A stretch of 64,000 nucleotides of DNA from an uncultured Prevotellaceae bacterium (GTDB lineage: Bacteria > Bacteroidota > Bacteroidia > Bacteroidales > Muribaculaceae): positions 1 to 64,000 of the forward strand of contig ONIL01000022.1 in NCBI GenBank assembly GCA_900317835.1, read 5' to 3'. Positions 8,412 through 33,306 of this stretch are shown piece by piece (position 1 is the stretch's first letter; every line of letters starts with the position of its first letter). Made by a program: the position numbers and the translations under genes. The notes under the pieces are model-generated. The model did not search any database. It had not been told where the DNA came from and saw only the letters and a program-made list of their open reading frames with translations.

Positions 8412-8447
8412 TAATGATTTTTATATTAAATGACGTTAAAAACGCCT

Positions 8448-8903: not shown

Positions 8904-9044
8904 TAATTGTTACGTTATTAGTTGTTAATACTTCTATACAGAGCTGCAAAATTACAAATAATTATCAAACCATAAAAACTATTTTCTGCTTTTAGGCTAT
9001 GGTGAGGTGGAGATGGTTGATTTTGATGAGATTTGCTGTCCTGT

Positions 9045-11282: not shown

Positions 11283-11439
11283 GGCTGCAAAGATAGTGTT
11301 TTTTCCTGAGAAATTCATATCTCAAGAGCGTGGAGCGGAAAACCTCAACGCTGCGATATCCCGATTTTCAGGCATGATGCCGCAGCATATCGGAAAAAAG
11401 ATTACTTTTGCACCCAAAAACAGGGCTAACAGTTGAAGT

Positions 11440-12099: not shown

Positions 12100-12122
12100 G
12101 GGCAGCGTGCGACCTGAAATGT

Positions 12123-12166
12123 AAAGACAAAGCACCTCGCGGTTGAACGCGAGGTGCTTTGTCTTT
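12123..12166. terminator. Bidirectional terminator, perfect 19-bp stem
   Basis: Bases 12123-12141 and 12148-12166 are exact inverted complements around a 6-nt loop (GTTGAA). The outer arms are A-rich/T-rich, so U tracts form on both strands. It sits between convergent genes (the MBL hydrolase and the BspA-dockerin protein). Confidence 0.9.
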
Positions 12167-12214
12167 GTATGTGTTCAGCATTCGTTTGGAATGCCGAAAT
12201 CCTGATAGGGTAGG

Positions 12215-14947: not shown

Positions 14948-15006
14948 ACTCAATAGTTTTTTGGGTTATTAATGATGTTTGGTAATAATTTTTCGTTAGG
15001 AAGTTG

Positions 15007-15036
15007 CAAATATACAGAATTTTTAAAGCGATGCAA
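15007..15036 (-). promoter_or_regulatory. Promoter for the BspA-dockerin gene
   Basis: TTG (15036-15034; TTTTG when extended) with a 19-nt spacer and TATATTTG (15014-15007) on the minus strand. The predicted leader is about 50 nt. Confidence 0.65.
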
Positions 15037-15053
15037 AATAAATCCTGTAAATT

Positions 15054-15764: not shown

Positions 15765-15937
15765 AGTATTCAATATTTTGGTAATCATTTGCAAATATAA
15801 TAAAAACCCCAACGAATTACTTTTTGAGCGGATAAATATTTGGCTTTTAACTATTAAAAATGATAGCGGCTGTAGAATGGGAAAATGAAATGGGTGTTAA
15901 CTTGTTAACAACTGCAAAAAAATGGTGTCTAAAAAGG

Positions 15938-15968
15938 TTGGTCATTTAATTAAAAATGTGTATATTTG
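15938..15968 (+). promoter_or_regulatory. Promoter of the nuo-atp-nuo block
   Basis: TTG (15938-15940), 20-nt spacer, TATATTTG (15961-15968): a full match to the Bacteroidetes consensus. Transcription would start near 15975, leaving a leader of about 128 nt before nuoA. I found no other consensus promoter at the nuoH-atpD or atpG-nuoI junctions. Confidence 0.75.
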
Positions 15969-16102
15969 CACCGAGTTTAAGGGTTTCACTGCTGTTGTTA
16001 CCGCATTGTGTGCGTGTAAATAATTGTGCAGTAGGGACTTTTGAATTGTAGTTACAAATAACCTGCCAAAAATTAAAACAAACAATAGATAGAACTTCTT
16101 TT

Positions 16103-16477
16103 ATGGATTTATCAATTTTCGGAGTACAGAGCACGACTCTCGCAATCACGGCGGCCTTGACCGGCGTGTTGCTGGTAGTCGGTGCGCTGGTTATTGCGTG
16201 GCTTATCGGCCCGCGCAGCTACACAAAGAAGAAGGGCGAACCCTTCGAGTGCGGTATTCCCACCCGAGGTGACTCAATGGCCCAGTATCATGTGGGTTAT
16301 TACCTGTTCGCCATCCTGTTCCTGATGTTTGACGTCGAGACGGTCTTCCTATTCCCGTGGGCAACCATCTGTAAGAACATCGGCAGCCAGGCGTTGTTCG
16401 CCGTGGGCACTTTCCTTGTTATTCTCGTTTTAGGTCTGGCTTATGCCTGGAAGAAAGGAGCGTTGAGATGGAAGTGA
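16103..16477 (+). CDS. nuoA: NADH-quinone oxidoreductase subunit A
   Basis: Small membrane subunit of complex I (124 residues) with three transmembrane helices at about 12-34, 66-90 and 95-115. Family features are the ECGIPTRGDS loop (normally ECG..P..) with its conserved Cys, and FDVETVFLFPW in helix 2, where the conserved acidic pair lies. It anchors the NuoB/D module to the membrane arm. It is first of the nuo block and overlaps nuoB by 10 bases, so translation is probably coupled. Confidence 0.95.
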   Translation: MDLSIFGVQSTTLAITAALTGVLLVVGALVIAWLIGPRSYTKKKGEPFECGIPTRGDSMAQYHVGYYLFAILFLMFDVETVFLFPWATICKNIGSQALFAVGTFLVILVLGLAYAWKKGALRWK

Positions 16478-17076
16478 AAATCAAGTCGATGAAGCATGAG
16501 GACTTCAAGGACAATGAGTATATCGACAATCTTGTTGAGCAGTTGCGTGCTGGTGGCACCAACATCATCGTGGGCAAACTCGACCAACTGATGAACTGGG
16601 GTGTGAGCAACTCACTGTGGCCGTTGTGCTTCGGTACCAGTTGCTGCGCAATCGAGTTCATGTGCTTGGGTGCCGCCCGTTATGACATGGCACGCTACGG
16701 CTTTGAGGTGGCCCGCAACAGTCCCCGTCAGGCCGACTACATCATGTGCCAGGGTACCATCAACTACCGCATGGCTCCGGCACTGAAACGTCTTTATGAG
16801 CAGATGGCCGAGCCCAAGTATGTCATTGCCTGCGGCTCATGCACTGTGAGCGGTGGTCCTTTCAAGAACAGCTACTGTGTGGTCAAGGGCGTTGACGAGA
16901 TCATCCCCGTTGATGTTTACCTGCCCGGATGCCCGCCACGTCCCGAGGCATTTTTCTATGCCCTGATGCAGTTACAGCGCAAGATTAAGGTGCAGAAGTA
17001 CTTTGGCGGCGTGAACCGCAAGGAGAAGCTGGAACTCAAGTATGACGGAACGGCATTGAAGGAGGAAACCAAATAA
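16468..17076 (+). CDS. nuoB: NADH-quinone oxidoreductase subunit B (cluster N2)
   Basis: Peripheral-arm subunit of 202 residues that carries the terminal 4Fe-4S cluster N2, which passes electrons to quinone. The ligands are visible: tandem Cys in FGTSCCAIEFM, Cys in ACGSCTVSGG and Cys in LPGCPPRPE. The start at 16468 lies inside the end of nuoA; 20 bases separate it from nuoCD. Length is normal for the family, with a short charged C-terminal tail. Confidence 0.96.
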   Translation: MEVKIKSMKHEDFKDNEYIDNLVEQLRAGGTNIIVGKLDQLMNWGVSNSLWPLCFGTSCCAIEFMCLGAARYDMARYGFEVARNSPRQADYIMCQGTINYRMAPALKRLYEQMAEPKYVIACGSCTVSGGPFKNSYCVVKGVDEIIPVDVYLPGCPPRPEAFFYALMQLQRKIKVQKYFGGVNRKEKLELKYDGTALKEETK

Positions 17077-17096
17077 ACCTGATAAAATCCATTGAT

Positions 17097-18731
17097 ATGG
17101 CAGATATAGAAAACAAAATCACACAGTTGTGCCCGCAGGCGCAAGTCGATACCACCGGCGAGTTCCCGCTGATCACCGTTGATGACGCGCATTGGCATGA
17201 CCTGGCCCGCTCACTGAAGAACCAGTTGCACTATGACGTGCTCAGCGCCGTTGTGGGTATGGACTGGACCGAATCTCTGGGCTGTGTTTATTACCTGACC
17301 AATACAAGTACCCATGAGTTGCTGCACGTCAAGGTCGCCACTACCGACCGTCAGAACCCGCAGCTGCATTCGGTCGTTGACTTGTGGCCCGTGGCCAATT
17401 TCCAGGAGCGCGAGGTCTATGACTTCTACGGCATCGTGTTCATCGGCCACCCCGACATGCGCCGCATGTTCCTGCGCACCGACTGGGTGGGTTACCCCCT
17501 GCGCAAGGATTACGATCCCGCCAGCAACCCCCTGCGTCTCGACGACGAGACCAACGAGGATTACACTTGCCGCTGGGTCGAGGACGAGAATGGCAAGGTC
17601 ACCAAGGTGGATGGCAAGGTCTTCGAGGACGACGAGTATGTTGTCAATGTGGGCCCGCAGCACCCGTCAACCCACGGTGTGATGCGCTACCGTGCCAGCC
17701 TGGATGGTGAGATTGTCAAGAAGATTGATGTTGTGAGCGGCTACATCCACCGCGGCATCGAGAAGATGTGCGAGAACCTGACTTATCCCCAAATGCTGCT
17801 CTATACCGAGCGCATGGACTATATGGCTGCCCACATCAACCGCCACTGCATGTGCATGTGTGTTGAGAAGGCTCTTGGCCTTGAGGTGCCCCGCCGTGCC
17901 GAACTTATCCGCCTGATGATGGACGAGTTGATGCGCTTGTCTTCACACTTGTTGAGCTATGGTTGCTTGACGATGGACCAGGGAGCCACGACAGCGTTTT
18001 TCTACGGTTTCCGCGAGCGAGAATTGATTTACGACATCTTTGACCGCACTTGTGGCGCCCGCATGTCGATGAGCTACAGCACCATCGGTGGCGTTGTCGC
18101 CGACGTTCACGAGGACTTCATCAAGGATGTGCGTCACGCTTGTGATGTTATCGAGAAAAACCTCAAGGAGTACCACCAGCTCTTCACGGGCAACGTCATT
18201 GCCGTGAACCGCATGAAGGGTGTGGGCATCCTCAGCAAGCTGGATGCCATCGACTATGATATCACTGGCCCGTCAGGCCGTGCCAGCGGATGGCACTGCG
18301 ACGTGCGCAAAACCAATCCCTACTCACTGTATAACGAGTTCGATTTCGATGAGGTCGTTTACGAGAATGGAGACTCGATGGACCGCTACATGGTCCGCAT
18401 GAAGGAGATGGAGCAGTGCATCAAGATCCTGCGCCAAGCCTGTGACAAGCTCGAGGCCGAGGGTATCCAGGGTGAGTACTGCGCTCCCAAGGTGCCCAAG
18501 GTGATGAAACTGCCCGCTGGTCACTGGTACCAGCAGGTCGAGGCCAGCCGCGGCGCCTTTGGCGTGTACATCGAGAGTGACGGCAATACCAAGCCTGTGC
18601 GCGTTCACTTCCAGTCACCGTGCTTCAACCTGATTGGCGTTGTGGACTTGACATGTAAGGACAACATGATCGCCGACTTGATTACCATCACGGCATCGCT
18701 CGACTTCGTTATCCCCGATATCGACCGATAA
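17097..18731 (+). CDS. nuoCD: NADH-quinone oxidoreductase subunit C/D fusion
   Basis: Fusion of the 30-kDa (NuoC) and 49-kDa (NuoD) subunits in 544 residues. The NuoC part covers about 1-165 and has the signature HPDMRRMFLRTDWVGYPLRKDY. After a charged linker, NuoD begins near 183 with NVGPQHPSTHGVMR, contains GYIHRGIEKMCE and ends with DFVIPDIDR. The HPSTHG histidine lies at the quinone-binding site next to N2. The fusion is normal in Bacteroidetes and enterobacteria. The gap of 52 bases to nuoH holds no promoter-like element. Confidence 0.96.
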   Translation: MADIENKITQLCPQAQVDTTGEFPLITVDDAHWHDLARSLKNQLHYDVLSAVVGMDWTESLGCVYYLTNTSTHELLHVKVATTDRQNPQLHSVVDLWPVANFQEREVYDFYGIVFIGHPDMRRMFLRTDWVGYPLRKDYDPASNPLRLDDETNEDYTCRWVEDENGKVTKVDGKVFEDDEYVVNVGPQHPSTHGVMRYRASLDGEIVKKIDVVSGYIHRGIEKMCENLTYPQMLLYTERMDYMAAHINRHCMCMCVEKALGLEVPRRAELIRLMMDELMRLSSHLLSYGCLTMDQGATTAFFYGFRERELIYDIFDRTCGARMSMSYSTIGGVVADVHEDFIKDVRHACDVIEKNLKEYHQLFTGNVIAVNRMKGVGILSKLDAIDYDITGPSGRASGWHCDVRKTNPYSLYNEFDFDEVVYENGDSMDRYMVRMKEMEQCIKILRQACDKLEAEGIQGEYCAPKVPKVMKLPAGHWYQQVEASRGAFGVYIESDGNTKPVRVHFQSPCFNLIGVVDLTCKDNMIADLITITASLDFVIPDIDR

Positions 18732-18783
18732 TGTCAACGAGTGAAATAGAGAAAGAACAAAACCACTAAAAGAGATAACAGAT

Positions 18784-19866
18784 ATGTTTGACTTCGGAAT
18801 AGTCACGAGATGGTTAAATGACTGGATGAACAGCTTCATGCCAGGCTGGTTGACCACGACAATCGAGTGTGTGCTGGTGGCAGTGGGACTGCTGGTGGCT
18901 TACTCGCTCATCGCCATGTTCTACATCTTTTATGAGCGCAAGGTCTGCGGTTGGATTCAGTGCCGCCTGGGCCCGATGCGCGTGGGTAAGTGGGGCTTGC
19001 TCCAGGTGTTTGCCGACGTGATCAAGATTCTCCAGAAGGAGTTGATCACCCTGTGGCACACTGACAAGTTCCTTTTCAAACTGGCGCCTTATCTGGTGCT
19101 CATCGCATCGATGCTCACCTTTGCCTGCCTGCCGTGGGGAAAGGGCTTGCAGATTGTCGACATGAACATCGGCGTGTTCTTTATTGTCGCTGTGTCCTCG
19201 ATCGGTGTGCTGGGAATCCTGCTCGCCGGTTGGGCAAGTAATAGCAAGTACACCCTCATCGGTGCAATGCGAAGTGGCGCACAGATGATCAGCTATGAGC
19301 TGTCCTGTGGAATCTCCATCCTGACGATTGTGTGCCTGGCCGGCACCATGTCCATCACGGGCATTGTCGAGGCACAGCAAGACGGATGGTTCATTTTCAA
19401 GGGCCATCTCCCCGCCATTCTCGCGTTCATTATATATATAATCGCAGCCAACGCCGAGAACAACCGTGGCCCGTTTGACCTCCCCGAGGCCGAGCACGAG
19501 TTGACCGCTGGATACCACACCGAGTACTCGGGTATCCATTTCGGCTTCTTCTATCTGGCCGAGTACCTGAACCTGTTTATCGTGTCGGGTATCGCTGCGC
19601 TGCTCTTCCTGGGCGGCTGGATGCCCTTGCACATTCCCGGTTGGGAAGGCTTCAATACCGTGATGGACTACATCCCCAGTGTGGTGTGGTTCTTGGGTAA
19701 GGCGTTCTTCATGACCTTTATCTTCATGTGGATCCGTTGGTCTTTCCCCCGCGTGCGCATCGACCAGATGCTGGCTCTGGAGTGGCGTTACCTGATGCCT
19801 ATCGGCCTTGTTAATCTGGTGGTCATGGCCATTATCGTGACTCAGGGCTGGTACTTCGGTTCCTAA
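18784..19866 (+). CDS. nuoH: NADH-quinone oxidoreductase subunit H
   Basis: Membrane subunit of 360 residues with about eight helices, forming the quinone entry path. Signature regions are [14 protein letters not shown] near the first loop, the conserved [21 protein letters not shown] loop with its acidic residues, and [17 protein letters not shown] at the C-terminal end. It is the last nuo gene before the ATP synthase genes: atpD begins 49 bases later, with no hairpin or promoter match in between. Confidence 0.96.
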
Positions 19867-19888
19867 TTCATCAAGCAAAAAACAATAA

Positions 19889-21415
<1,527 letters not shown>

Positions 21416-21454
21416 AACCGCTTCACAGAGTTAAACATTATATAATAATATAAC

Positions 21455-21688
21455 ATGACACTCAAAATCATATCGGCTGAACAGATTGAGTTTGAAGGCA
21501 CCGTGGAACAGGTGACGCTTCCTGGCGTCATGGGCAGTTTCCAAGTGCTGAAAAACCATGCCGCGCTCATCGCTGCGCTCACCGCGGGGCGCATGAGTTA
21601 TGTGGCCGATGGCAGCACCGTGGAGCGTGACATTCACGGCGGTGTGGCCGATGTCAAGGATAATGTGGTGTCGGTTTGCCTGTATTAA
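21455..21688 (+). CDS. atpC: F1 ATP synthase subunit epsilon, short form
   Basis: Only 77 residues, against about 130-140 for the usual bacterial epsilon. The N-terminal beta-sandwich is complete (ISAEQIEFEG, VTLPGVMGSFQVLKNHAALIAAL), but the C-terminal two-helix domain that can inhibit ATP hydrolysis is missing. It should still link gamma to the c-ring. The stop codon is clean and atpB follows 9 bases later, so this is not a visible truncation. Short forms are known in some Bacteroidetes; loss of epsilon-type inhibition is inferred. Confidence 0.92.
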   Translation: MTLKIISAEQIEFEGTVEQVTLPGVMGSFQVLKNHAALIAALTAGRMSYVADGSTVERDIHGGVADVKDNVVSVCLY

Positions 21689-21697
21689 CGCAGAGTA

Positions 21698-22771
21698 ATG
21701 AAAAGCAAGATAATAACTGCGATTGTCGCCCTCGTGATTGTGGCGTTGATGGGGTGGGGTTACTACAGCACCGCCCAGCATCGTGCACACGGTCACAGCA
21801 GCGAGCTGAACCCCAAGGAGACCATTTTTGAGCACTTGGGCGACGCTTACGGCTGGGAGGTGCCCTTCAATCACAGCATGAGCATTCCGTTGCCCATCAT
21901 TGTGTGGGGACAGGACGGCCTGCACTGCTTCATGAGCAACCGCATCACTGGCGGCGAGACCTATGACGGTTTCAAGATTTCGACCAGCGAGGAGCATCAC
22001 GGCAAAGTCGTGCAAGTGCTCAATGATGGAAGCGAGTACCGTCCTTGGGATTTCTCCATTACCAAGAATGTAGCAGGCCTCATTATTGCCGCAATTGTTG
22101 TGGTGCTGATGGTGATGTCACTCAAGCGCTGGTATGTACGCAACGGCATGAAGGCTCCGCGAGGGGGCAAGGGTGCTCTTGAGTTGGTTGTGGACTTTGT
22201 CTATAGCGACACCATCCGCCCCATCCTGGGCAAGCATGCGCCCAAGTATGCGCCCTACTTGCTCACCGCCTTCTTCTTCATCCTGACGATGAACTTGCTG
22301 GGCCTGATCGTCATCTTCCCGGGTGGCGCCAACCTGACCGGCAACATTGCCGTGACGCTGGTGCTGGCTCTGCTGACGTTCCTGATCACGACCTTCAGCG
22401 GCACGCGTGAGTACTGGAAAGAGATCTTCTGGCCCGAGGTGCCCATGGCGCTCAAGTGCCCCGTCCCCATGATGCAGCTCATCGAGGTGCTGGGTATGTT
22501 CACCAAGCCGCTGGCCTTGATGGTCCGTCTGTTTGCCAACATGATGAGCGGCCACATGGTGGTCCTCGTGTTGGTATTGCTTATCTTCATTTTCACCAAT
22601 CTCTTCGGTGTGGGCGTGGGTGTCGGCACGAGCATCTTCTCGGTGGCCTTCACGCTGTTCATGCTCTTGCTTGATGTGCTGGTGAGCTTCATCCAGGCCT
22701 ATGTGTTTACCATCCTGAGCACCATCTTCATTTCGATGGCACTCGTGGAACCTCATCACAAGAAGGCCTAA
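21698..22771 (+). CDS. atpB: Fo ATP synthase subunit a
   Basis: Membrane subunit of 357 residues, longer than the usual 250-290 because of an N-terminal extension with a signal-like helix (1-25) and a soluble segment to about 125. The core helices follow, with the essential Arg in LMVRLFANMMSGH and the proton-channel helix near the C-terminus (FIQAYVFTILSTIFISMAL). It follows atpC by 9 bases, and I see no atpI. The extended N-terminus is common in Bacteroidetes. Confidence 0.95.
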   Translation: MKSKIITAIVALVIVALMGWGYYSTAQHRAHGHSSELNPKETIFEHLGDAYGWEVPFNHSMSIPLPIIVWGQDGLHCFMSNRITGGETYDGFKISTSEEHHGKVVQVLNDGSEYRPWDFSITKNVAGLIIAAIVVVLMVMSLKRWYVRNGMKAPRGGKGALELVVDFVYSDTIRPILGKHAPKYAPYLLTAFFFILTMNLLGLIVIFPGGANLTGNIAVTLVLALLTFLITTFSGTREYWKEIFWPEVPMALKCPVPMMQLIEVLGMFTKPLALMVRLFANMMSGHMVVLVLVLLIFIFTNLFGVGVGVGTSIFSVAFTLFMLLLDVLVSFIQAYVFTILSTIFISMALVEPHHKKA

Positions 22772-22774
22772 TAA

Positions 22775-23062
<288 letters not shown>

Positions 23063-23077
23063 TTATTCTAGGCTCAG

Positions 23078-23575
23078 ATGGAACTTTTCACGCCTGAATT
23101 TGGCCTGGTCTTCTGGATGTTCCTGGCATTCCTGTGCCTGTACTTCATCCTTGCCAAGTGGGCATGGCCTTTCATCATCAAGTCGATGGAAGAGCGTGCC
23201 GACCTGATTGACAAGGGTGTGGCCTACGCACAGGAAGCCAAGTCGCACCTGGACAATGCCAAGGCCGAAGCGGACAAGTTGCTTGCCCAGGCCCGTAACG
23301 AGCAGGCCGACATCCTGCGCGAAGCATCCAAGATGCGCAACGAGCTCATCGAGAATGCCCGCAGCGAGGCTGCTGACGAGGCTAAGAAGGTCAGCGAGGC
23401 CGCTCAGGTATCGCTGGAGCAGTCCCGCAAGGAGGCCGAGAAGCAACTGCGCGCCGAGGTGGGTGACCTGGCACTTCAGATTGCTGAGAAGGTGATTCGC
23501 AAGAATATCGCCAGCGACGATGCCCAGCGGGCGCTAGTTGACCAATATCTGAGTGAGGTTGAGACTAAAAACTAA
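23078..23575 (+). CDS. atpF: Fo ATP synthase subunit b
   Basis: Peripheral-stalk subunit of 165 residues: one N-terminal membrane helix (about 8-27) and a long, charged right-handed coiled coil with heptad-like Ala/Glu/Lys spacing (AKSHLDNAKAEADKLLAQAR). Length and topology are standard. It lies between atpE (15 bases) and atpH (6 bases), in the normal gene order. Confidence 0.94.
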   Translation: MELFTPEFGLVFWMFLAFLCLYFILAKWAWPFIIKSMEERADLIDKGVAYAQEAKSHLDNAKAEADKLLAQARNEQADILREASKMRNELIENARSEAADEAKKVSEAAQVSLEQSRKEAEKQLRAEVGDLALQIAEKVIRKNIASDDAQRALVDQYLSEVETKN

Positions 23576-23581
23576 CGCGAT

Positions 23582-24124
23582 ATGAGTGACGGACTAATTC
23601 CACGCCGATACGCCAAAGCGTTGTACAAGTACGCCGTCGAGAACGGCGACTCGCAGGAAATCTATGAGCTCTTGAAGAAGCTCAGTTTCCGCCACACCGC
23701 TATCGACGACCTCAAGCGCGCTGTACTCAACCCCGAAATCTCTGACGAAGCCAAGGGAGCCTATATGCTCAAGCTTGCGGGCGGCAAGCCCGGCAGCTCG
23801 CTGGACAAGTTCCTGCTGCTGGTCGTGCGCAACAACCGCGCCGAGTATCTGCAGAAGATTTCCCTCGCATACGTCGATCTCTACCGCGAGGCCCATGAGA
23901 TAGCCCATGTGGTCATCACCACGGCAGTCCCCATGCCCGAGGCCGAGGTCAATGCCATTATCGACATCGTCAAGAAGCGACTGGGAGCGATGGAACTCGA
24001 GATCGAGCAGATCATCGACCCCGAATTGATAGGCGGTTTCACCGTCAAGATCAACGGTCTGGTACTTGACGCGTCGGTAAAGAGAGAATTGAACGAATTG
24101 CGATTACAATTGCAAAAGAAATAA
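23582..24124 (+). CDS. atpH: F1 ATP synthase subunit delta
   Basis: Subunit of 180 residues linking the top of F1 to the b-stalk. It has the N-terminal helical domain beginning LIPRRYAKALYKYAVENG and the C-terminal family signature in IDPELIGGFTVKINGLVLDASVKREL. Position between atpF and atpA is standard. Confidence 0.94.
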   Translation: MSDGLIPRRYAKALYKYAVENGDSQEIYELLKKLSFRHTAIDDLKRAVLNPEISDEAKGAYMLKLAGGKPGSSLDKFLLLVVRNNRAEYLQKISLAYVDLYREAHEIAHVVITTAVPMPEAEVNAIIDIVKKRLGAMELEIEQIIDPELIGGFTVKINGLVLDASVKRELNELRLQLQKK

Positions 24125-24139
24125 CTGAATTTTCAAGAG

Positions 24140-25735
24140 ATGATTAATCCCAGTGAAATATCTGATATACTGAAACAGCAACTCATCGAGGATATCGCTA
24201 AGCGTCAGGTGGTCTTTGAAGAAGAAGGCACCGTCCTGGAGGTGGGTGATGGCGTGGCTCATGCTTATGGTCTGCACAACGTGGAGGCCAACGAGCTCGT
24301 GCAATTCGAGAACGGTGTGACCGGAGTCGCCATGAACCTGGAGGAGAGTGACGTGGGTATCATCCTGCTGGATGAGGTGGACACCGTTACCGAGAACATG
24401 AAAGTTCGCCGCACCGGTGAAATCGCATCCATCGAGGTCGGTGAGGGTCTGTTGGGCCGCGTGATCGACGTGCTTGCCAAACCCATCGACGGCAAAGGCC
24501 CCATCGAGGGCAAAAAGCTGCGTCTGCCGCTGGAGCGCAAGGCTCCTGGCGTTATCTTCCGCCAGCCGGTGAACCAGCCGTTGCAGACGGGCCTCAAAGC
24601 CATCGACTCGATGATTCCCATCGGCCGTGGCCAGCGTGAGCTCATCATCGGTGACCGCCAGATCGGCAAAACCGCCATTGCGGTGGACACGATCATTAAC
24701 CAGCGCGCCAACTTCGAGGCCGGCAAGCCGGTATATTGCATCTATGTCGCCATCGGTCAGAAGGCTTCGACCGTAGCTGCCCTCGTCAACAAGCTTGAGG
24801 AGAGCGGCGCACTGCCCTATACCATCGTTGTGGCCGCCACGGCTGCCGACTCGGCTTCGATGCGCTACTACGCACCGTTCGCCGGCGCCGCCATCGGTGA
24901 ATTCTTCCGTGACACCGGTCGTGATGCCCTTGTGATCTATGATGACCTTTCCAAACACGCTGTGGCCTATCGTGAGATCTCGCTGATCCTCAAGCGTCCG
25001 TCGGGACGTGAGGCTTATCCTGGCGATATCTTCTACCTGCACAGCCGTCTGCTTGAGCGTGCCGCCAAGATCAACGAGAATCAGGATGTGGCCAGCGTGA
25101 TGAACGACCTGCCGGCCCCACTCAAGCCCATTGTCAAGGGTGGTGGCTCGTTGACGGCATTGCCCATCATCGAGACTCAGGCCGGCGACGTGAGCGCCTA
25201 TATCCCCACTAACGTGATTTCGATTACCGATGGCCAGATCTATCTGGAGTCGGCGCTGTTCAACTCGGGAATCCGTCCCGCTGTGAATGTGGGTATCTCG
25301 GTATCGCGTGTGGGTGGTAACGCCCAGATCAAGTGCATGAAGAAGGTGGCTGGTACCCTCAAGATTGCCCAGGCTCAGTATCGTGAACTTGAGGCCTTTA
25401 CCAAGTTTGGTGGCGACATCGACCCCGTTACGGCACGCACCATCGACACTGGCCGCAAGAACGAGCGACTGCTTGTGCAGCCCCAGTACACGCCCATGCA
25501 GGTCGAGGAGCAGGTGGCTATCATCTATTGTGGTGTGAACGGCCTGTTGCGTGATGTGCCCCTGGACAAGGTGGCCGAGTTTGAGAAACTGTTCATCCAG
25601 TACCTGCGCGGCAAGCACCAGAGCGATGTGCTCGACGTGCTGCGCGACGGCAAGATTGACGACGACGTCATGTCCAAGCTCAAGGCCGCCGCTGCCCAGA
25701 TTTCGGCAAAGTATGCCGAAGTTGCCGCCAGTTAA
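24140..25735 (+). CDS. atpA: F1 ATP synthase subunit alpha
   Basis: Non-catalytic nucleotide-binding subunit of 531 residues. The P-loop is [14 protein letters not shown] (about 172-185). The arginine-finger region is near [20 protein letters not shown] and the signature [14 protein letters not shown] is clear. A long reverse-strand open frame over the same bases is a codon-bias shadow. Confidence 0.97.
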
Positions 25736-25759
25736 TACCGCAAACATTAACTTCGCAAG

Positions 25760-26650
25760 ATGTCAACATTAAGAGAACTCAAGACGCGAATTGGATCGGT
25801 AGCCTCCACGCAGAAGACGACGAGTGCCATGAAAATGATCTCGTCGTCCAAGATGCGCAAGGCTACAGGCCAACTGCAACGTCTTTCCCCTTATCGTCAC
25901 ATGGTGCAACACGTCATCAGCCACTTGCTGGTGACCGACCAGCAGTTTGACTCGCCGCTCATCGCCGAGCGTGAGGTAGGGCGTGTGGCACTTGTGGTGT
26001 TTGGCAGCGATGATGGCTTGTGTGGTGGTTTCAACGTCAACATCTTCAAGCAGTTGCTTGTCAGCATTAATGAGGTGCGCAAGCAATACGGTCAGCAGGT
26101 GGGTATTACCATCGTGCCCGTGGGCAAGAAAATGACCAAGGCGGTCCAGAAAATCACTGGCAAGGGCAAGGACATCCAGATGGAACGTGTGGCGCTCAAC
26201 ACCCGCAGCGACAGTGAGGAACTGTATGCCTTCACCGACCTGATGAAAACGCGTTTCCTGGAGCATGCCTTTGACCGGGTGGAGATGCTTTACATGCACT
26301 TCATCTCGACCGGCAAGCAGGTGTTCACGCGCGAGCAGCTGCTCCCCGTGAGCTATCAGGGTCTGGCTGATAATGTTGACCCCCGAGCCGCCAACAGTCC
26401 CTGCCTGTTTGAGCCCGATGCCAACACCATCTTCAACACCGTGCTGCCCCTGCACATCAAGTCGATGCTCCAGGATGTGTTCATCCAGAGTGCGGCCAGT
26501 GAGCAGAGCGCACGCGTGATGGCCATGCAGGCGGCAAGCGACAATGCCAAGGAATTGCTTGACGAGTTGCAGCTGGAGTACAATAAGCTGCGTCAACAGG
26601 GCATCACCACCGAGCTGCTCGACATCCTGGGCGGTCAGGTGGAACGCTAA
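25760..26650 (+). CDS. atpG: F1 ATP synthase subunit gamma
   Basis: Central-stalk subunit of 296 residues. The N-terminal helix TLRELKTRIGSVASTQKTTSAM and the C-terminal helix MQAASDNAKELLDELQLEYNKLRQQGITTELLDILGG form the rotor coiled coil. It closes the atp set; nuoI starts 37 bases later, again without promoter or hairpin. Confidence 0.96.
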   Translation: MSTLRELKTRIGSVASTQKTTSAMKMISSSKMRKATGQLQRLSPYRHMVQHVISHLLVTDQQFDSPLIAEREVGRVALVVFGSDDGLCGGFNVNIFKQLLVSINEVRKQYGQQVGITIVPVGKKMTKAVQKITGKGKDIQMERVALNTRSDSEELYAFTDLMKTRFLEHAFDRVEMLYMHFISTGKQVFTREQLLPVSYQGLADNVDPRAANSPCLFEPDANTIFNTVLPLHIKSMLQDVFIQSAASEQSARVMAMQAASDNAKELLDELQLEYNKLRQQGITTELLDILGGQVER

Positions 26651-26687
26651 TGCGAAATGTAAAGAAAACAAGAAAATAATTAGAAAT

Positions 26688-27251
26688 ATGAGCATTAAGG
26701 AGTATTTCGTCTCAATCTTTAAAGGCTTTTTCAGCCTGATTAAGGGCATGGCGGTGACCGGCAAGGAGCTGGTGACCCCCAAGGTGACCGAGCAATATCC
26801 CGAGAATCGCGCTACACTGAACATTCCCGAGCGGTTCCGTGCTACACTGGAATTCATCTATGATGAGAATGGTGTACACAAGTGTATCGCGTGCGGTAGC
26901 TGTGAGCGCAACTGCCCTAACCAGACCATCAGCATCACCAAGCGCATGGTCGATTTGCCCGACGGCAAAAAGAAAATGAAGCTCGACAAGTACATGTATG
27001 ACTTGGGCAGCTGCACATTCTGCGGATTGTGCGTGCAGGTGTGTCCCACCAACGCTATCAAGTTCAGCAACGACTTTGAGCAAGCAGTGTTCACGCGTGA
27101 GAAGCTTGTTAAGCAGCTCAATTACCTGCCCGAGAAGGACGACGCTCCCGCTCCCGCACCTGCCGCCAAGCCTGCGGCTCCTGCTGCCGAAGCGAAGCCC
27201 GCTGCTGCCGAGACTAAAGTAGAAGAACCCAAAGAAAACAAAGAACAATAA
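26688..27251 (+). CDS. nuoI: NADH-quinone oxidoreductase subunit I
   Basis: Iron-sulfur subunit of 187 residues with two 4Fe-4S motifs, CIACGSCERNCPN and CTFCGLCVQVCPT, that carry clusters N6a and N6b. An N-terminal amphipathic helix (EYFVSIFKGFFSLIKG) lies on the membrane. The C-terminal 45 residues form an Ala/Pro/Lys/Glu-rich tail (PAPAPAAKPAAPAAEAKPAA) that is not part of the conserved fold. The ATG at 26688 gives the expected N-terminus; longer in-frame starts overlap atpG. The stop overlaps the nuoJ start by one base. Confidence 0.96.
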   Translation: MSIKEYFVSIFKGFFSLIKGMAVTGKELVTPKVTEQYPENRATLNIPERFRATLEFIYDENGVHKCIACGSCERNCPNQTISITKRMVDLPDGKKKMKLDKYMYDLGSCTFCGLCVQVCPTNAIKFSNDFEQAVFTREKLVKQLNYLPEKDDAPAPAPAAKPAAPAAEAKPAAAETKVEEPKENKEQ

Positions 27252-27766
27252 TGGAATCAGTAGGTAACATCATTTTGTACTTTATCGTTGCCATCGCCAT
27301 CATCGTCTTCTCGGTGTTGACGGTAACCACGCGCAAGATTCTGCGCTCGGCAACCTATCTGCTGTTTGTGCTTTTTGCCACAGCCATCATCTACTTCCAG
27401 ATGGACTATCAGTTCCTGGGAGCGGTACAGATTGCCGTCTATGCCGGCGGCATCATGGTGCTGTTTGTGTTTGCCATCATGCTAACGCAACAGCCCGGCA
27501 AGAGTGCCGATGCCCTGGCCACGCATCGCCGCTGGTTGGGACTGACGGCTGCGCTGGCTGGAGTCGCCGTGTGCGGCTATGGCCTGTTCAGCTTTTCAGG
27601 CTTCGTTGGCCGACTGCTCAGCAGCGGGGTGGACATCAATATGGACAAGATCGGCCAATTCCTGTTGAGTACCGACAAGTTTGGCTATCTGTTGCCTTTT
27701 GAGGCCATCAGTGTGTTGTTATTGGCTTGTATCATCGGTGGTGTGGTTATCGCCCGTCGCCGCTAA
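27251..27766 (+). CDS. nuoJ: NADH-quinone oxidoreductase subunit J
   Basis: Membrane subunit of 171 residues with five predicted helices. The region YFQMDYQFLGAVQIAVYAGGIMVLFVFAIML contains the conserved Gly/Ala-rich helix 3 of NuoJ, which bends at the quinone-proton coupling site. Its start shares one base with the nuoI stop (TAATG), so translation is probably coupled. Confidence 0.95.
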   Translation: MESVGNIILYFIVAIAIIVFSVLTVTTRKILRSATYLLFVLFATAIIYFQMDYQFLGAVQIAVYAGGIMVLFVFAIMLTQQPGKSADALATHRRWLGLTAALAGVAVCGYGLFSFSGFVGRLLSSGVDINMDKIGQFLLSTDKFGYLLPFEAISVLLLACIIGGVVIARRR

Positions 27767-27780
27767 AACGTGATTAGATT

Positions 27781-28092
27781 ATGGATTTGACACTGTTTAT
27801 GTATCTCATTCCCAGCCTCATCATGTTTGGCTGTGGCGTTTATGGCTTCATCACCCGCAAGAACATGATTGCCATCATGATCTCGCTGGAGCTGATGTTG
27901 AACTCGGTCGATATCAACTTTGTGTTGTTTAACCGTTACCTGTTTCCTGGCCAGATGGACGGCATGTTCTTCTCGCTGTTCGCGATTGCCATCGCAGCGG
28001 CCGAGACGGCTCTTGCCCTTGCCATCATCATCAATGTCTATCGCATTGCCAAGAACGTGGACATCAACCAAATCACTAAACTGAAATTCTAA
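27781..28092 (+). CDS. nuoK: NADH-quinone oxidoreductase subunit K
   Basis: Three-helix membrane subunit of 103 residues. The conserved acidic residues are present: Glu in ISLELMLNSVDINFVLFNR and Glu in AIAAAETALALAIIINVYR, which line the proton path. Normal size; 14 bases after nuoJ and 5 before nuoL. Confidence 0.95.
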   Translation: MDLTLFMYLIPSLIMFGCGVYGFITRKNMIAIMISLELMLNSVDINFVLFNRYLFPGQMDGMFFSLFAIAIAAAETALALAIIINVYRIAKNVDINQITKLKF

Positions 28093-28097
28093 CGATT

Positions 28098-30095
28098 ATG
28101 CCACTAAGTTTAGCAATAGTAGTTGTAGTATTGCCCCTGCTGATGTTCCTGTTCCTGGGACTTGTCGGGGTGAAGATGGGTAGAAAAATCACTGGTGTGA
28201 TTGGCGTGCTGGCCATGCTGGTCGATACCGTTCTTGCCTATGGCGTGGCGCTCACCTATTTCTTCGGGAGCGGCCAAGGCCAGATGGTGGACGTCGTCCG
28301 CCAGGCTGTCGTTGTCGCTAATCCCGCCTGGTTGTCGTTTACCGACACGCTGGTGGTGCGCATGGGTGTCCTCGTTGACCCCATCGCTGCGATGATGCTT
28401 GTGGTGATTACCACCGTGTCGTTGATGGTGCACCTTTACAGCCTCGGGTACATGAGCGACCATGATGGCAACGCCGAGAAGGGATTCCAGCGTTACTATG
28501 CCTTCCTGGCGCTGTTCACGTTCTCGATGCTGGGATTGGTAGTGGCCACCAACATTTTCCAGATTTTCGTCTTCTTTGAGATGGTGGGTCTGTCATCCTA
28601 CCTGCTCATCGGTTTCTATTACTCGACACCCGCTGCCAACCATGCCAACAAGAAGGCCTTCATCGTCACCCGTCTGGCTGACCTGTTCTTCCTGTTGGGT
28701 ATCATGATTTTGAGCTATTATACCGGCACCTTCGACTTCGACGCGCTGGTATTCGGGCCCACAATGTCGGGTAGCCTCGAGACCGCCCAGAGTGCCATCA
28801 GCACTGCCGGCGGTGCCACCTTCCTGGGCTGCTCGGTCATGGGATGGGCGTTGACCTTCATCTTCATTGGCGGTGCCGGTAAGAGTGCGATGTACCCCTT
28901 GCACATCTGGCTGCCCGACGCTATGGAGGGTCCCACCCCCGTGTCGGCGCTGATTCACGCTGCGACCATGGTTGTCGCCGGTGTGTTCCTGGTGGCAAGG
29001 CTCTTCCCGCTATATGTCCTCGAGCAGGGTGCGATGAACATCATCCTGGTCGTTGGCGCCTTCACGGCCTTCTATGCCGCCGCCATCGCCTGCACCCAGA
29101 GCGACATCAAGCGTGCGCTGGCCTTCTCGACCATCTCGCAGATTGCCTTCATGATGACCTCGCTGGCCGTTAGCTCCAACAACAACTCGCTCATCGAGAT
29201 TCACGAGGGTTACGGCCTGGGTTACATGGCGTCGATGTTCCACCTGTTCACCCACGCTATGTTCAAGGCGTTGCTCTTCCTGTGTGCCGGTGCTATCATT
29301 CATGCCGTTCACAGCAATGAGAACGACAAGATGCACGGTCTGCACAAGTACATGCCCATCACCAGCATCTGCTTCCTTATCGGCTGTCTTGCCATTGCGG
29401 GTATTCCCCCGTTTGCCGGCTTCTTCAGTAAGGACGAGATCCTCGTTGCTGCCTATGAGCGTGGCCTAGGTTGGGGACTGTGGATGTCGATGGTGGCTTG
29501 CATGACCGCCTTCTACATGTTCCGCATCTATTACCTCATCTTCTTCTGGAAGAAACATGAGGTGCACGATGAACATCACGCGCCCAAGGATCAGCCTTGG
29601 ACGATGACCCTGCCGCTGATTATCCTTGCAGCCATCTCGTGTGTTGCGGGCTTTGTGCCCTTCCACAACCTGGTGACCTGGGACGGCCATCACCTGCACA
29701 CCGCTCTCAACTGGACGGTTGCAGGTTCGAGCATCTGTGTCGCCCTGGTGGGTATCGGTTTGGCCACGTTAATGTATTACAAGGAAAACCCGCTGCCCGA
29801 GCGCATGGCCAATGCAATGCGCGGCCTGTGGACAGCAAGCTACAAGCGCTTCTACATGGATGAGCTCTACCAGTTCATCACCCACAAGGTGATCTTCCAG
29901 GGCATCTGTGTGCCCATTGCATGGTTCGACCGTCACATCATCGACGGCTTCATGAACTTGCTGGCCGATGTGACCAATAATGTATCGTTCGGTATCCGCC
30001 GCTTGCAGTCAGGAACCATTCAGGGTTATGTGTTTGTGTATATGATAGGAGCCCTGTTGCTCGCAGTCATCACAATGATATGTATAATGTTCTAA
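28098..30095 (+). CDS. nuoL: NADH-quinone oxidoreductase subunit L
   Basis: Antiporter-like distal subunit of 665 residues with about 16 helices. Key pumping residues are visible: Glu in FFEMVGLSSYLLIGF, Lys in GGAGKSAMYPLHIWLPDAMEGPTPVSA, and Lys and His in FHLFTHAMFKALLFLCAGAIIHAVH. A long C-terminal segment (about 520-665) fits the lateral helix. Confidence 0.96.
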   Translation: MPLSLAIVVVVLPLLMFLFLGLVGVKMGRKITGVIGVLAMLVDTVLAYGVALTYFFGSGQGQMVDVVRQAVVVANPAWLSFTDTLVVRMGVLVDPIAAMMLVVITTVSLMVHLYSLGYMSDHDGNAEKGFQRYYAFLALFTFSMLGLVVATNIFQIFVFFEMVGLSSYLLIGFYYSTPAANHANKKAFIVTRLADLFFLLGIMILSYYTGTFDFDALVFGPTMSGSLETAQSAISTAGGATFLGCSVMGWALTFIFIGGAGKSAMYPLHIWLPDAMEGPTPVSALIHAATMVVAGVFLVARLFPLYVLEQGAMNIILVVGAFTAFYAAAIACTQSDIKRALAFSTISQIAFMMTSLAVSSNNNSLIEIHEGYGLGYMASMFHLFTHAMFKALLFLCAGAIIHAVHSNENDKMHGLHKYMPITSICFLIGCLAIAGIPPFAGFFSKDEILVAAYERGLGWGLWMSMVACMTAFYMFRIYYLIFFWKKHEVHDEHHAPKDQPWTMTLPLIILAAISCVAGFVPFHNLVTWDGHHLHTALNWTVAGSSICVALVGIGLATLMYYKENPLPERMANAMRGLWTASYKRFYMDELYQFITHKVIFQGICVPIAWFDRHIIDGFMNLLADVTNNVSFGIRRLQSGTIQGYVFVYMIGALLLAVITMICIMF

Positions 30096-30129
30096 TATCA
30101 ACGGTCTATCAAAATAGAAAGGATATACA

Positions 30130-31656
30130 ATGGAAATTTTCAATAATATACTGATTTACTTTGTGATCGTGCCTCTGTTGACGCTTGGAGGCCTGGCCCT
30201 GTGCAGCAATCGCGGCATCAAGGCCATCAGGACCGTTGCTGTCGTGGGTGCCAGCGTGCTCATGGTGCTGGCCATCTGGCTGGTGAGCATTTTCCTGCAG
30301 ACCCGTGGCGCTGGTGACACCAGCGAAATGATATTGCAGAGTCACGTCATGTGGTATGCTCCGTTCAACATTCAGCTCTCGCTGGGAGTTGACGGCGTCA
30401 GCGTGGTGATGATATTGCTGTCGGCGTTCATCGTGTTCGCCGGCGTGTTCGCCTCGTGGAAGATGAACCCCCTGCCCAAGCAGTTCTTCATGTGGTTCTT
30501 CCTGTTGTCCACGGGCGTGTTTGGTTTCTTTATCTCGATTGACCTGTTCACGATGTTCATGTTCTATGAGGTCGCTCTGATTCCCATGTACCTGCTGATT
30601 GGTGTTTGGGGTAGCGGCAACAAGAACTACAGCGCCATGAAACTGACGCTGATGCTGATGGGAGGATCAGCCTTCCTGATGCTTGGCTTGATTGGAATCT
30701 ATTTCCACTCGGCTCCCGAGGGTCAGCCCTTGACGATGAATATCTTGAATATTGCTCATAACGATGCCATCCCGCACAGCTGGCAGTATGTACTGTTCCC
30801 GCTGACGTTTGTCGGCTTCGGCGTGTTGGGTGCCATGTTCCCGTTCCACACATGGTCTCCCGACGGTCATGCCTCGGCGCCCACTGCGGTGTCGATGCTC
30901 CACGCCGGTGTGCTGATGAAACTTGGTGGTTACGGCTGCTTCCGCATTGCTATTTACCTGATGCCGTTTGCCGCCAATGAACTGGCATGGATTTTCCTGC
31001 TGCTGACAGGCTTCAGCATCGTCTATGGAGCGTTGAGCGCTTGTGTGCAGACCGACCTCAAGTACATCAATGCCTATTCGTCGGTGAGCCACTGCGGTAT
31101 GGTATTGTTTGCCATCCTGATGTTCAACACCACGGCGATGACCGGTGCTGTGCTGCAGATGCTCTCGCATGGTCTGATGACGGCATTGTTCTTTGCCCTG
31201 ATCGGTATGATTTATGGTCGCACCCACACGCGTGACATCCGCGACATGGGCGGTATGATGCACATCATGCCTTATCTGGGTGTGGGCTATGTGATTGCCG
31301 GTTTGGCATCGTTGGGTCTGCCGTTCCTGAGCGGTTTTGCTGCCGAGATGACCATCTTCATGGGCTCGTTCCAGCACACCGACACCTTCCACCGTGTGCT
31401 CACCATCATGGCGACCACTTCGATTGTCGTGACGGCGGTTTACATCTTGCGCGTTGTCGCCAAGTTGCTCTTCGGTGAGGTGCAGGATGAGCACCACCGC
31501 TCGCTGACCGACGCCACTTGGGAGGAGCGCCTCTCGACGGCCACGCTGATTCTGGCTGTGGCTGCCATCGGTTGCTTCCCCAACTTCTTTATTAACATCA
31601 TCAGTAGCAGCTTTGACCCCGTCGTTAAGGCGTTGCAGGCTGCATTGCCCTTGTGA
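30130..31656 (+). CDS. nuoM: NADH-quinone oxidoreductase subunit M
   Basis: Antiporter-like subunit of 508 residues and 14 helices. The conserved Glu is in FMFYEVALIPMYLLIGVWG and the Lys in LHAGVLMKLGGYG. PFHTWSPDGHASAPTAVSM is the usual loop after helix 7. Thirty-four bases separate it from nuoL. Confidence 0.96.
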   Translation: MEIFNNILIYFVIVPLLTLGGLALCSNRGIKAIRTVAVVGASVLMVLAIWLVSIFLQTRGAGDTSEMILQSHVMWYAPFNIQLSLGVDGVSVVMILLSAFIVFAGVFASWKMNPLPKQFFMWFFLLSTGVFGFFISIDLFTMFMFYEVALIPMYLLIGVWGSGNKNYSAMKLTLMLMGGSAFLMLGLIGIYFHSAPEGQPLTMNILNIAHNDAIPHSWQYVLFPLTFVGFGVLGAMFPFHTWSPDGHASAPTAVSMLHAGVLMKLGGYGCFRIAIYLMPFAANELAWIFLLLTGFSIVYGALSACVQTDLKYINAYSSVSHCGMVLFAILMFNTTAMTGAVLQMLSHGLMTALFFALIGMIYGRTHTRDIRDMGGMMHIMPYLGVGYVIAGLASLGLPFLSGFAAEMTIFMGSFQHTDTFHRVLTIMATTSIVVTAVYILRVVAKLLFGEVQDEHHRSLTDATWEERLSTATLILAVAAIGCFPNFFINIISSSFDPVVKALQAALPL

Positions 31657-31697
31657 TGAAAGTGTTTAACCTGATAATAAAAGCATAAGATAGAGAT

Positions 31698-33176
31698 ATG
31701 GATTTCAATCTGGATTATTCACAAATCTTGTATATGCCGCAGGAGATTGGCCTGTTGGTGGTTTTCGTGCTTGTTTTCTTATACGACACTTTCATGCCTG
31801 AGCGCTCCAAGCGCTTTACGGCCGTGTTCTCGGTCATCATGATGGCGCTTTACACGATATATTGCTTCTGCCTGCCTGCTGTGGCGGGAGAAGCCTTCGG
31901 TGGCATGTTTGAGTCCAGTGCCCCCACTTGGGTGATGAAGAACATCCTCAGTGTGGGTGTGCTGCTGGTGCTCCTGCAGGCTGTGAAGTGGACCGACAGC
32001 GACTTCGTGAGCATCCGCCGCGGCGAGTTCTACGAGTTGACGTTGTTGACGTTGTTCGGCATGTTCCTCATGATATCGGCACGGCATTTCCTGCTGTTCG
32101 TCATCGGTCTGGAGACCGCCTCGTTGCCTATCGCGGCACTGGCAGCCTTCGAGAAGCGTTATTACGAGTCACATGAGGCGGCAGCCAAGTACATTTTCAC
32201 TGCCATCTTCTCGTCGGCGATTTTCCTGCTGGGTATCTCGTTTGTGTATGGCATGAGCGGTTCCCTGTACTTCAGCGATATCGCCACGGCACTCATCGGT
32301 AACCGTTCGGCACTGCTGATCGCAGCTCTGGCCTTTGTCATTGCCGGTGTTGGCTTCAAACTCTCGCTGGTGCCCTTCCACCTGTGGACGGCCGACGTTT
32401 ACCAGGGCTCGCCCACAGCTGTGACCAGCTACCTGTCGGTCATCAGCAAGGGTGCTGCAGCCTTCTCGTTCCTGATCATCCTTGTTCAGGTGTTCGGCTC
32501 GGCCTACTCTCAGGTATGGGAGTGGATGCTCTATGCCCTCATCGTGCTCACGATCACGCTGGGTAACCTGTTCGCCATCCGTCAGCGCAACCTCAAGCGC
32601 TTCTTGGCGTTCTCGTCAATTTCCCAGGCTGGTTACATCATGCTTGGCGTCATCGCTGTCAACGTGATGGGTATGTCCTCGATGATCTACTACGTGCTGG
32701 TTTACATCTTCAGCAACCTGGCAGCCTTCGGTGTGATTGCCGCTATCGAGCGTCAAACGGGCAAGGTCACCATGGACGACTATAACGGTCTGTTCAAGAC
32801 CAATCCGTGGCTTGCCTTCACGATGATGCTGGCGATGTTCTCGCTGGGTGGTATTCCTCCGTTTGCGGGCTTCTTCAGCAAGTTCTTCATCTTTGTCGGT
32901 GCCTGCCATCAGGGTTCGGTAGCTATCTATGCGTTGGTACTCATCGCGTTGGTCAACACCATCATCTCCCTGTACTACTATCTGTTGGTAGTCAAGGCGA
33001 TGTTCATCCGTCAGGACGAGTGTGTGATTCCTGCGTTCAAGAGCCATTGGACCGAGCGCACAGGTCTCATCCTGTGTGTGATGGGCATCATCTTCATTGG
33101 CCTGCTGAGTTGCATCTATACTGCCATCAATGGCAGCGTCGATGCCATCAGTTCCATGTTCGCGGTTATCCAATAA
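31698..33176 (+). CDS. nuoN: NADH-quinone oxidoreductase subunit N
   Basis: Antiporter-like subunit of 492 residues. The conserved Glu is in LFVIGLETASLPIAAL and Lys residues are in GVGFKLSLVPFHLWTADVYQGSP and NLKRFLAFSSISQAGYIMLG. It is the last gene of the block and is followed by a hairpin terminator. No nuoE, nuoF or nuoG accompanies the set, so the electron donor is likely not directly NADH, as in other 11-subunit complexes. Confidence 0.96.
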   Translation: MDFNLDYSQILYMPQEIGLLVVFVLVFLYDTFMPERSKRFTAVFSVIMMALYTIYCFCLPAVAGEAFGGMFESSAPTWVMKNILSVGVLLVLLQAVKWTDSDFVSIRRGEFYELTLLTLFGMFLMISARHFLLFVIGLETASLPIAALAAFEKRYYESHEAAAKYIFTAIFSSAIFLLGISFVYGMSGSLYFSDIATALIGNRSALLIAALAFVIAGVGFKLSLVPFHLWTADVYQGSPTAVTSYLSVISKGAAAFSFLIILVQVFGSAYSQVWEWMLYALIVLTITLGNLFAIRQRNLKRFLAFSSISQAGYIMLGVIAVNVMGMSSMIYYVLVYIFSNLAAFGVIAAIERQTGKVTMDDYNGLFKTNPWLAFTMMLAMFSLGGIPPFAGFFSKFFIFVGACHQGSVAIYALVLIALVNTIISLYYYLLVVKAMFIRQDECVIPAFKSHWTERTGLILCVMGIIFIGLLSCIYTAINGSVDAISSMFAVIQ

Positions 33177-33257
33177 ATATCGATACAATCAATATTAACT
33201 TCTGATATTATTTAGCATAACCAAACAGAATCAGGTTTATTCATAACTATGATGAGG

Positions 33258-33296
33258 GGAAGCGTCGCGGTAGTCCGCCATGCTTCCTTGATTTTT
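33258..33296 (+). terminator. Terminator of the nuo-atp-nuo block
   Basis: GGAAGC (33258-33263) pairs with GCTTCC (33282-33287) and GCGG with CCGC inside, separated by a small symmetric internal loop; the apex is TAGT. TTGATTTTTT follows. It is 82 bases past nuoN. Confidence 0.7.
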
Positions 33297-33306
33297 TCCA
33301 TTGATA

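What the first reader, a model, noticed from the sequence alone, without database searches (positions are those of the whole stretch)
15938..33296. Complete ATP synthase operon nested inside the complex I operon
The order is nuoA-B-CD-H | atpD-C-B-E-F-H-A-G | nuoI-J-K-L-M-N, all rightward. The atp set keeps the usual Bacteroidetes gene order, as if moved in as a block between nuoH and nuoI. Junctions are only 49 and 37 bases, with no hairpin and no TAnnTTTG promoter match, while a full promoter precedes nuoA and a terminator follows nuoN. One transcript of about 17 kb could set the ratio of proton-pumping complex I to ATP synthase. Seen in sequence: order, spacing, absence of signals. Inference: co-transcription and functional coupling.
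Basis: partly seen in the sequence, partly recalled or inferred. Interest (0 to 1): 0.75.

Follow-up and report, generated by a model that had tools for sequence, protein, structure and literature searches.

The report
ATP synthase genes inside complex I operon
In this gut bacterium the genes for the ATP-making enzyme sit as a block inside the gene set for a respiratory proton pump; the layout is real and shared by a group of gut bacteria, and was already reported for its family in 2016.

Summary
Confirmed. The window carries nuoA-B-CD-H | atpD-C-B-E-F-H-A-G | nuoI-J-K-L-M-N on one strand, with a promoter match before nuoA, a terminator hairpin after nuoN, and neither at the two junctions. It is no misassembly: of 119 genomes of the family, 115 show at least one nested junction and 4 are cut by contig ends. 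It is also already published: Ormerod et al. [quoted passage not shown]

What I add: the arrangement was seen in seven sampled Bacteroidales families and changes once on the three trees built here. In the other Bacteroidales loci read around nuoH, nuo is contiguous and no atp gene lies inside it. Nested AtpD falls inside Bacteroidales, so an import from outside is unlikely. Standalone atp operons carry a TAnnTTTG element (16 of 18); nested ones do not beyond chance (4 of 39), so the block appears to have lost its promoter and to depend on the one before nuoA. Co-transcription is thus supported, not shown. That it sets the pump-to-synthase ratio is untested. The locus has no nuoE, F or G, the NADH-oxidising part of complex I.

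The parts
15938..15968 (+). promoter match before nuoA: TTG - 20 bases - TAnnTTTG
   Evidence: the TAnnTTTG element is found within 300 bases of nuoA in 27 of 38 nested loci against 7.7 expected
16103..16477 (+). nuoA
   Evidence: Oxidored_q4
16468..17076 (+). nuoB
17097..18731 (+). nuoCD (fused)
18784..19866 (+). nuoH
19867..19915 (.). junction nuoH-atpD, 49 bases; no promoter match, no hairpin
19916..21415 (+). atpD (F1 beta)
21455..21688 (+). atpC (F1 epsilon, 77 aa, matches the N-terminal domain only)
21698..22771 (+). atpB (Fo a)
22823..23062 (+). atpE (Fo c)
23078..23575 (+). atpF (Fo b)
23582..24124 (+). atpH (F1 delta)
24140..25735 (+). atpA (F1 alpha)
25760..26650 (+). atpG (F1 gamma)
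26651..26687 (.). junction atpG-nuoI, 37 bases; no promoter match, no hairpin
26688..27251 (+). nuoI
   Evidence: best NCBIfam match NuoI, E 4e-31, just under its cut-off
27251..27766 (+). nuoJ
27781..28092 (+). nuoK
28098..30095 (+). nuoL
30130..31656 (+). nuoM
31698..33176 (+). nuoN
33256..33298 (+). terminator hairpin plus U run after nuoN
   Evidence: z -3.28

Best explanation
It is one 18-gene locus of about 17 kb for an 11-subunit complex I (without NuoEFG) and an F-type ATP synthase. In the common ancestor of a clade of gut Bacteroidales (Muribaculaceae, Barnesiella-like and related families), the whole atp operon was moved by a single rearrangement into the gap between nuoH and nuoI, and the atp block lost its own promoter. 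It is now read from the nuoA promoter to the terminator after nuoN. Shown: gene content, order, one change of state on three trees, kinship of AtpD within Bacteroidales, absence of consensus promoter matches at the inner junctions. Inferred: the rearrangement itself and the single transcript. Plausible but untested: that joint expression matches a proton pump to a proton-driven synthase. Equally possible is that the layout persists only because breaking it would leave atp without a promoter.
For: Gene identity and order. Fixed in the family: 115 of 119 genomes with a nested junction, 4 undecided at contig ends, 0 against. Seen in seven sampled families and in 28 of 80 named loci; in 49 of those 80 nuoI follows nuoH directly, 2 end at the contig edge, 1 has an 881-base gap before nuoI. 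Nested state: one change on the NuoB+CD+H tree (110 rows, 3 of unknown state not counted, support 99), one on AtpD (57 rows, 96), one on RpoB (18 genomes, 100/100). With outgroups, nested AtpD lies inside Bacteroidales. TAnnTTTG within 300 bases upstream: nested nuoA 27 of 38 (expected 7.7), nested atpD 4 of 39 (6.0), nested nuoI 4 of 31 (2.2), standalone atpD 16 of 18 (3.7), contiguous nuoI 8 of 63 (10.5). Thinned to 85% clusters (the standalone rows only had one duplicate taken out): standalone atpD 15 of 17 against nested atpD 2 of 20, Fisher p 1.7e-6.
Against: No RNA data. Promoters of other types, and internal promoters further than 500 bases from atpD, were not tested by comparison; in the window the sigma-70-type scan found more sites than shuffles across the region (24 against 13.1), though none on the + strand just before atpD or nuoI. 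Nested nuoI has a slight excess of TAnnTTTG (4 of 31 against 2.2 at 300 bases; 4 of 15 clusters at 500 bases). AtpD of G223, which has separate operons, is sister to the nested clade (100) while its RpoB and Nuo place it elsewhere, so some transfer of atp genes is likely. In B. fragilis the nuo operon is poorly expressed in rich medium (passage of PMC7002350), an awkward promoter for an ATP synthase unless it was re-tuned.
Confidence: 0.75

Rival explanations
1. Neutral relic: the block landed there by chance and lost its promoter; conservation reflects the cost of separating a promoterless essential operon, with no benefit from matched pump and synthase levels. (It shares the anatomy and the single transcript with the best explanation and differs on why the layout is kept.)
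For: One change of state and no reversal in the sample needs only a one-way ratchet; nothing tested here shows a benefit.
Against: Conservation across seven sampled families with short junctions is also what selection for joint expression would give; the two cannot be separated with these data.
Confidence: 0.45
2. Overlapping transcription units: atp has its own start inside nuoH or of a non-consensus type, so it is expressed independently despite its position.
For: Sigma-70-type sites are in excess across the region (24 against 13.1), and real promoters need not match TAnnTTTG (11 of 38 nested nuoA and 2 of 18 standalone atpD regions lack it within 300 bases).
Against: No enrichment of TAnnTTTG in the 300 or 500 bases before nested atpD (2 of 20 clusters in both), while standalone atpD has it in 15 of 17; no + strand sigma-70-type site in the 300 bases before atpD of the window.
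Confidence: 0.2
3. Horizontal replacement: an atp operon from another lineage was inserted into nuo and replaced the native one.
For: Long stem branch (0.42) leading to nested AtpD plus G223, and G223 AtpD sister to the nested clade against RpoB.
Against: Nested AtpD lies inside Bacteroidales with outgroups, gene order D-C-B-E-F-H-A-G is that of the standalone operons in the two genomes read in full, G223 and G281, and only one atpA and one atpD are found in the window's genome.
Confidence: 0.08
4. Assembly artefact joining two loci.
For: The window is from a 65-contig draft.
Against: Same junctions in 115 of 119 family genomes and in named records such as Barnesiella sp. An22.
Confidence: 0.01

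Closest known systems
nuo-atp locus of S24-7 / 'Ca. Homeothermaceae' (Muribaculaceae), Ormerod et al. 2016, PMC4936053
   Same: F-type ATP synthase integrated within the complex I locus; complex I of 11 subunits without NuoEFG (passages read)
   Different: The passages read give no junction positions, no spread to other families and no promoter comparison; those are added here. Its supplements were not open to me
nuo operon of Bacteroides fragilis (PMC7002350)
   Same: Complex I gene set without nuoEFG (passages)
   Different: nuo is one run of ten locus tags there (passages), and Bacteroides loci have nuoI next to nuoH with no atp genes inside
Standalone Bacteroidales atp operon
   Same: Order atpD-C-B-E-F-H-A-G in the two read in full (G223, G281)
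   Different: Separate location with a TAnnTTTG element before atpD in 16 of 18
Tandem nuo then atp in Bacteroidales MAG SIG115 (L090)
   Same: nuo and atp side by side on one strand
   Different: atpD begins about 300 bases after nuoN, nuo is not split, and the lineage lies outside the nested clade

Membership tests
Nested nuo-atp locus of Muribaculaceae (Ormerod 2016) | complete F-type atp set located inside the complex I locus | tested here: met
   the paper's statement read
Nested nuo-atp locus of Muribaculaceae (Ormerod 2016) | organism belongs to the family | tested here: met
   RpoB tree places the window with f1 genomes, Nuo tree with f1 genomes and records labelled Muribaculaceae; f1 genome G117 has nuoH at the same contig start position as the Muribaculaceae isolate record L130. 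The window's own record was not named by any search
11-subunit complex I (no NuoEFG) | nuoA,B,CD,H,I,J,K,L,M,N present and nuoE,F,G absent from the locus | tested here: met
   Elsewhere in the genome only the NuoF-type domain was searched: one match, beside two [FeFe]-hydrogenase genes and a NuoE-type gene on another contig. NuoE and NuoG were not searched genome-wide
11-subunit complex I (no NuoEFG) | electron transfer from a donor other than NADH coupled to proton pumping | not testable with these tools
   needs biochemistry
F-type ATP synthase | all eight subunits a,b,c,alpha,beta,gamma,delta,epsilon | tested here: met
   epsilon is only 77 aa
F-type ATP synthase | proton rather than sodium specificity of the c ring | tested here: inconclusive
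   AtpE sequence lacks the sodium-binding residues as I recall them for Ilyobacter; the motif comes from memory, no call
Single operon | promoter match before the first gene, terminator after the last, no TAnnTTTG match or hairpin at the two nuo/atp junctions | tested here: met
   sequence signals only; sigma-70-type sites elsewhere in the region are in excess
Single operon | one transcript across both junctions | not testable with these tools
   no RNA data held

The most novel reading that the evidence does not exclude
A one-time rearrangement made the ATP synthase of a clade of gut Bacteroidales transcriptionally dependent on the complex I promoter, with loss of its own promoter and re-tuning of the nuoA promoter, so that pump and synthase have been expressed as one unit ever since; a natural experiment in coupling a proton pump to its consumer.
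Probability: 0.5. Interest if true: 0.45.

Novelty: already known. Interest (0 to 1): 0.3.

Why it matters
Muribaculaceae are among the most abundant bacteria of the mouse gut (general knowledge, no call). If their ATP synthase can be made only together with complex I, respiration and ATP synthesis are tied at the level of transcription, unlike in Bacteroides. The layout may also serve as a genomic marker for a clade above the family level.

Tried and rejected
Misassembly: rejected by the family survey.

Loss of the locus in family genome G039: it first appeared to lack both nuoH and atpD; it has atpF-H-A-G-nuoI-J-K-L(start) on one contig and nuoL-M-N on another, so this was an assembly gap.

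L090 tandem nuo-atp as an intermediate: its place on the tree is outside the nested clade, so it is a separate case.

Import of atp from outside Bacteroidales: not supported (its bootstrap had not settled and one of 14 outgroup rows fell inside the order).

The nested nuoA promoter being closer to consensus than the contiguous one: 15 of 19 against 19 of 36 clusters at 300 bases (p 0.08), 18 of 19 against 22 of 36 at 500 bases (p 0.01); depends on window size, and the full TTG plus TAnnTTTG match shows no such difference (6 of 19 against 10 of 36), so treated as a hint only.

Failed or wrong scripts: the RpoB trees used wrong reading frames for some rows (one search gave two changes of state for that reason) and one search stopped with no rows; one search replaces them. 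In one search some genomes enter twice (as G handle and named record), and its printed table gives two changes for 'nested' when the row cut at the contig end (L132) is counted as a state of its own; one change when rows of unknown state are left out. One search dropped five duplicates (L035, L043, L044, L049, L068); one search dropped L115 (short).

Papers: searches (two of them listed nothing); among what I saw only PMC4936053 reports the arrangement. PMC4936053 and PMC7002350 were read as passages, not in full; the others were seen as search listings with the start of the abstract.

Full report
Observation. The 18 genes are there as described, on one strand, and each has the named subunit as its best NCBIfam match. 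nuoA, nuoI, nuoJ and atpC stay under NCBIfam cut-offs; nuoA, nuoJ and atpC pass Pfam's, and nuoI passes general 4Fe-4S models only. Inner gaps are 49 and 37 bases. A TTG-N20-TAnnTTTG element precedes nuoA at 15938-15968. A hairpin with a U run follows nuoN (z -3.28); the junctions have neither hairpin nor TAnnTTTG match. A scan for sigma-70-type sites, a promoter type not expected in this phylum (recalled), found 24 across the region against 13.1 in shuffles, none on the + strand in the 300 bases before atpD or nuoI. The genome has one atpA and one atpD; a third match to the ATPase model on contig 24 is most likely Rho (the name is my inference).

Family survey. NuoH and AtpD were searched in 119 genomes of the family, the window's genome included. 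118 had nuoH and 113 had atpD at the thresholds used. 110 have the two on one strand 21 to 176 bases apart, match edge to match edge. Of the other nine, G064, G091, G110 and G116 show the start of atpD directly after nuoH before the contig ends, and G039 shows atpG followed by nuoI. G045, G047, G075 and G093 are cut in or just after nuoH. So 115 of 119 show at least one nested junction, 4 of 119 are undecided, 0 of 119 contradict.

Wider survey. Of 198 genomes drawn from the order, 80 had nuoH and 172 had atpD at the thresholds used (the printed atpD places were cut, so not every pair could be checked). Nested pairs were seen in 14, in seven families: f1, f22, f28, f60, f68, f88, f109. Sixteen loci from 12 other families that I fetched all have nuoI next to nuoH. 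Of 149 genomes drawn from the class, 99 had nuoH, 145 had atpD and 97 had both; 11 of the 97 have them on one contig. One of these is the window; in the other ten they are at least 53,840 bases apart. In the remaining 86 they lie on different contigs, so adjacency across a contig end is not strictly excluded there. Among 80 named loci, 28 are nested (Barnesiella sp. An22, Muribaculaceae, Paramuribaculum, Ca. Gallibacteroides, Ca. Caccoplasma, Ca. Limisoma and others, as labelled), 49 have nuoI next (Bacteroides, Phocaeicola, Alistipes, Butyricimonas and others, as labelled), 2 end at the contig edge and 1 has an 881-base gap before nuoI. The 80 are the best-scoring of 573, themselves a capped list, ranked by likeness to the NuoH of G205, so they are not a random sample. 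Every nested locus whose fetched stretch reaches nuoI has the same gene order.

History. On a NuoB+CD+H tree of 110 rows the nested state changes once, with support 99 for the nested clade (quick method; 3 rows of unknown state were not counted). An AtpD tree of 57 rows and an RpoB tree of 18 genomes also show one change, support 96 and 100/100. With 14 outgroup rows the nested AtpD group lies inside Bacteroidales (one outgroup row falls inside the order and the bootstrap had not settled). Since nuoH-nuoI adjacency is found in lineages on both sides of the nested clade, I take nesting as the derived state. One loose end: G223 has separate operons, about 11 kb apart and converging on one contig, and its AtpD is sister to the nested clade, yet its RpoB and Nuo proteins place it elsewhere. 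A transfer of atp genes to or from that lineage is likely.

Signals. The TAnnTTTG element was counted in 300 bases upstream of start codons, with Markov shuffles as control: nested nuoA 27 of 38 (expected 7.7), nested atpD 4 of 39 (6.0), nested nuoI 4 of 31 (2.2), standalone atpD 16 of 18 (3.7), contiguous nuoA 25 of 62 (9.8), contiguous nuoI 8 of 63 (10.5). With the TTG box: 11, 0, 0, 5, 11 and 2 (expected 1.1, 0.9, 0.2, 0.6, 1.1 and 1.6). After thinning the nuo rows to one per 85% cluster and dropping one duplicate standalone row, the contrast holds: standalone atpD 15 of 17, nested atpD 2 of 20, p 1.7e-6. The nested atp block thus seems to have lost a promoter that its standalone relatives keep. 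Nested nuoI shows a slight excess (4 of 31; 4 of 15 clusters at 500 bases), so a weak inner promoter there is not excluded. Related sequences make these counts less independent than the tests assume.

Function. The locus has no nuoE, F or G. The one NuoF-type protein found in the genome lies next to two [FeFe]-hydrogenase genes and a NuoE-type gene on another contig, and an NqrF, a subunit of the sodium-pumping NQR, is present. B. fragilis NUO, which also lacks NuoEFG, showed no NADH:quinone oxidoreductase activity and is thought to take electrons from another donor (passages of PMC7002350). The AtpE sequence lacks the sodium-binding residues that I recall, so a proton-driven synthase is likely. 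A proton pump and a proton-driven synthase on one transcript make sense, but a shared transcript does not fix protein ratios, and no data here bear on that.

Prior work. [quoted passage not shown] The finding is therefore already known for this family. In the searches I saw no report of its spread to other families, single origin or promoter loss; that library lacks most subscription papers and bioRxiv preprints.

Verdict. Real, conserved, already reported; the additions are its single origin across seven sampled families and the apparent loss of the atp promoter. Interest 0.3.

Noticed in passing
L090 (Bacteroidales MAG SIG115), 7437-21058: nuoA-N followed about 300 bases later by atpD-C-B-E on the same strand: a separate case of nuo and atp side by side, without nesting.
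   Followed up: partly
G223: L045 and L046: nuo and atp converge about 11 kb apart on one contig; AtpD is sister to the nested clade while RpoB and Nuo are not, suggesting transfer of atp genes.
   Followed up: partly
L154 (contig 49 of the window's genome), 1409-7688: NuoF-type protein, [FeFe]-hydrogenase of group A6, NuoE-type protein and a second group A hydrogenase in a row, next to an rpsA match: likely a NADH-dependent hydrogenase.
   Followed up: partly
window 21455-21688: atpC is only 77 aa and matches only the N-terminal beta-sandwich domain; it lacks the C-terminal helices of longer epsilon subunits.
   Followed up: no
window 12215-14953 (-), 33411-34094 (+) and 34161-37367 (+): BspA-type leucine-rich-repeat proteins flank the locus; the two longer ones carry a dockerin type I domain and the last also a sulfatase-modifying-factor-like domain.
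   Followed up: no
window row in the trees: The window's lineage has a long end branch in the NuoB+CD+H (0.35), AtpD (0.2 and 0.26) and RpoB (0.25) trees, longer than the other Muribaculaceae rows there, so it seems to evolve fast.
   Followed up: no
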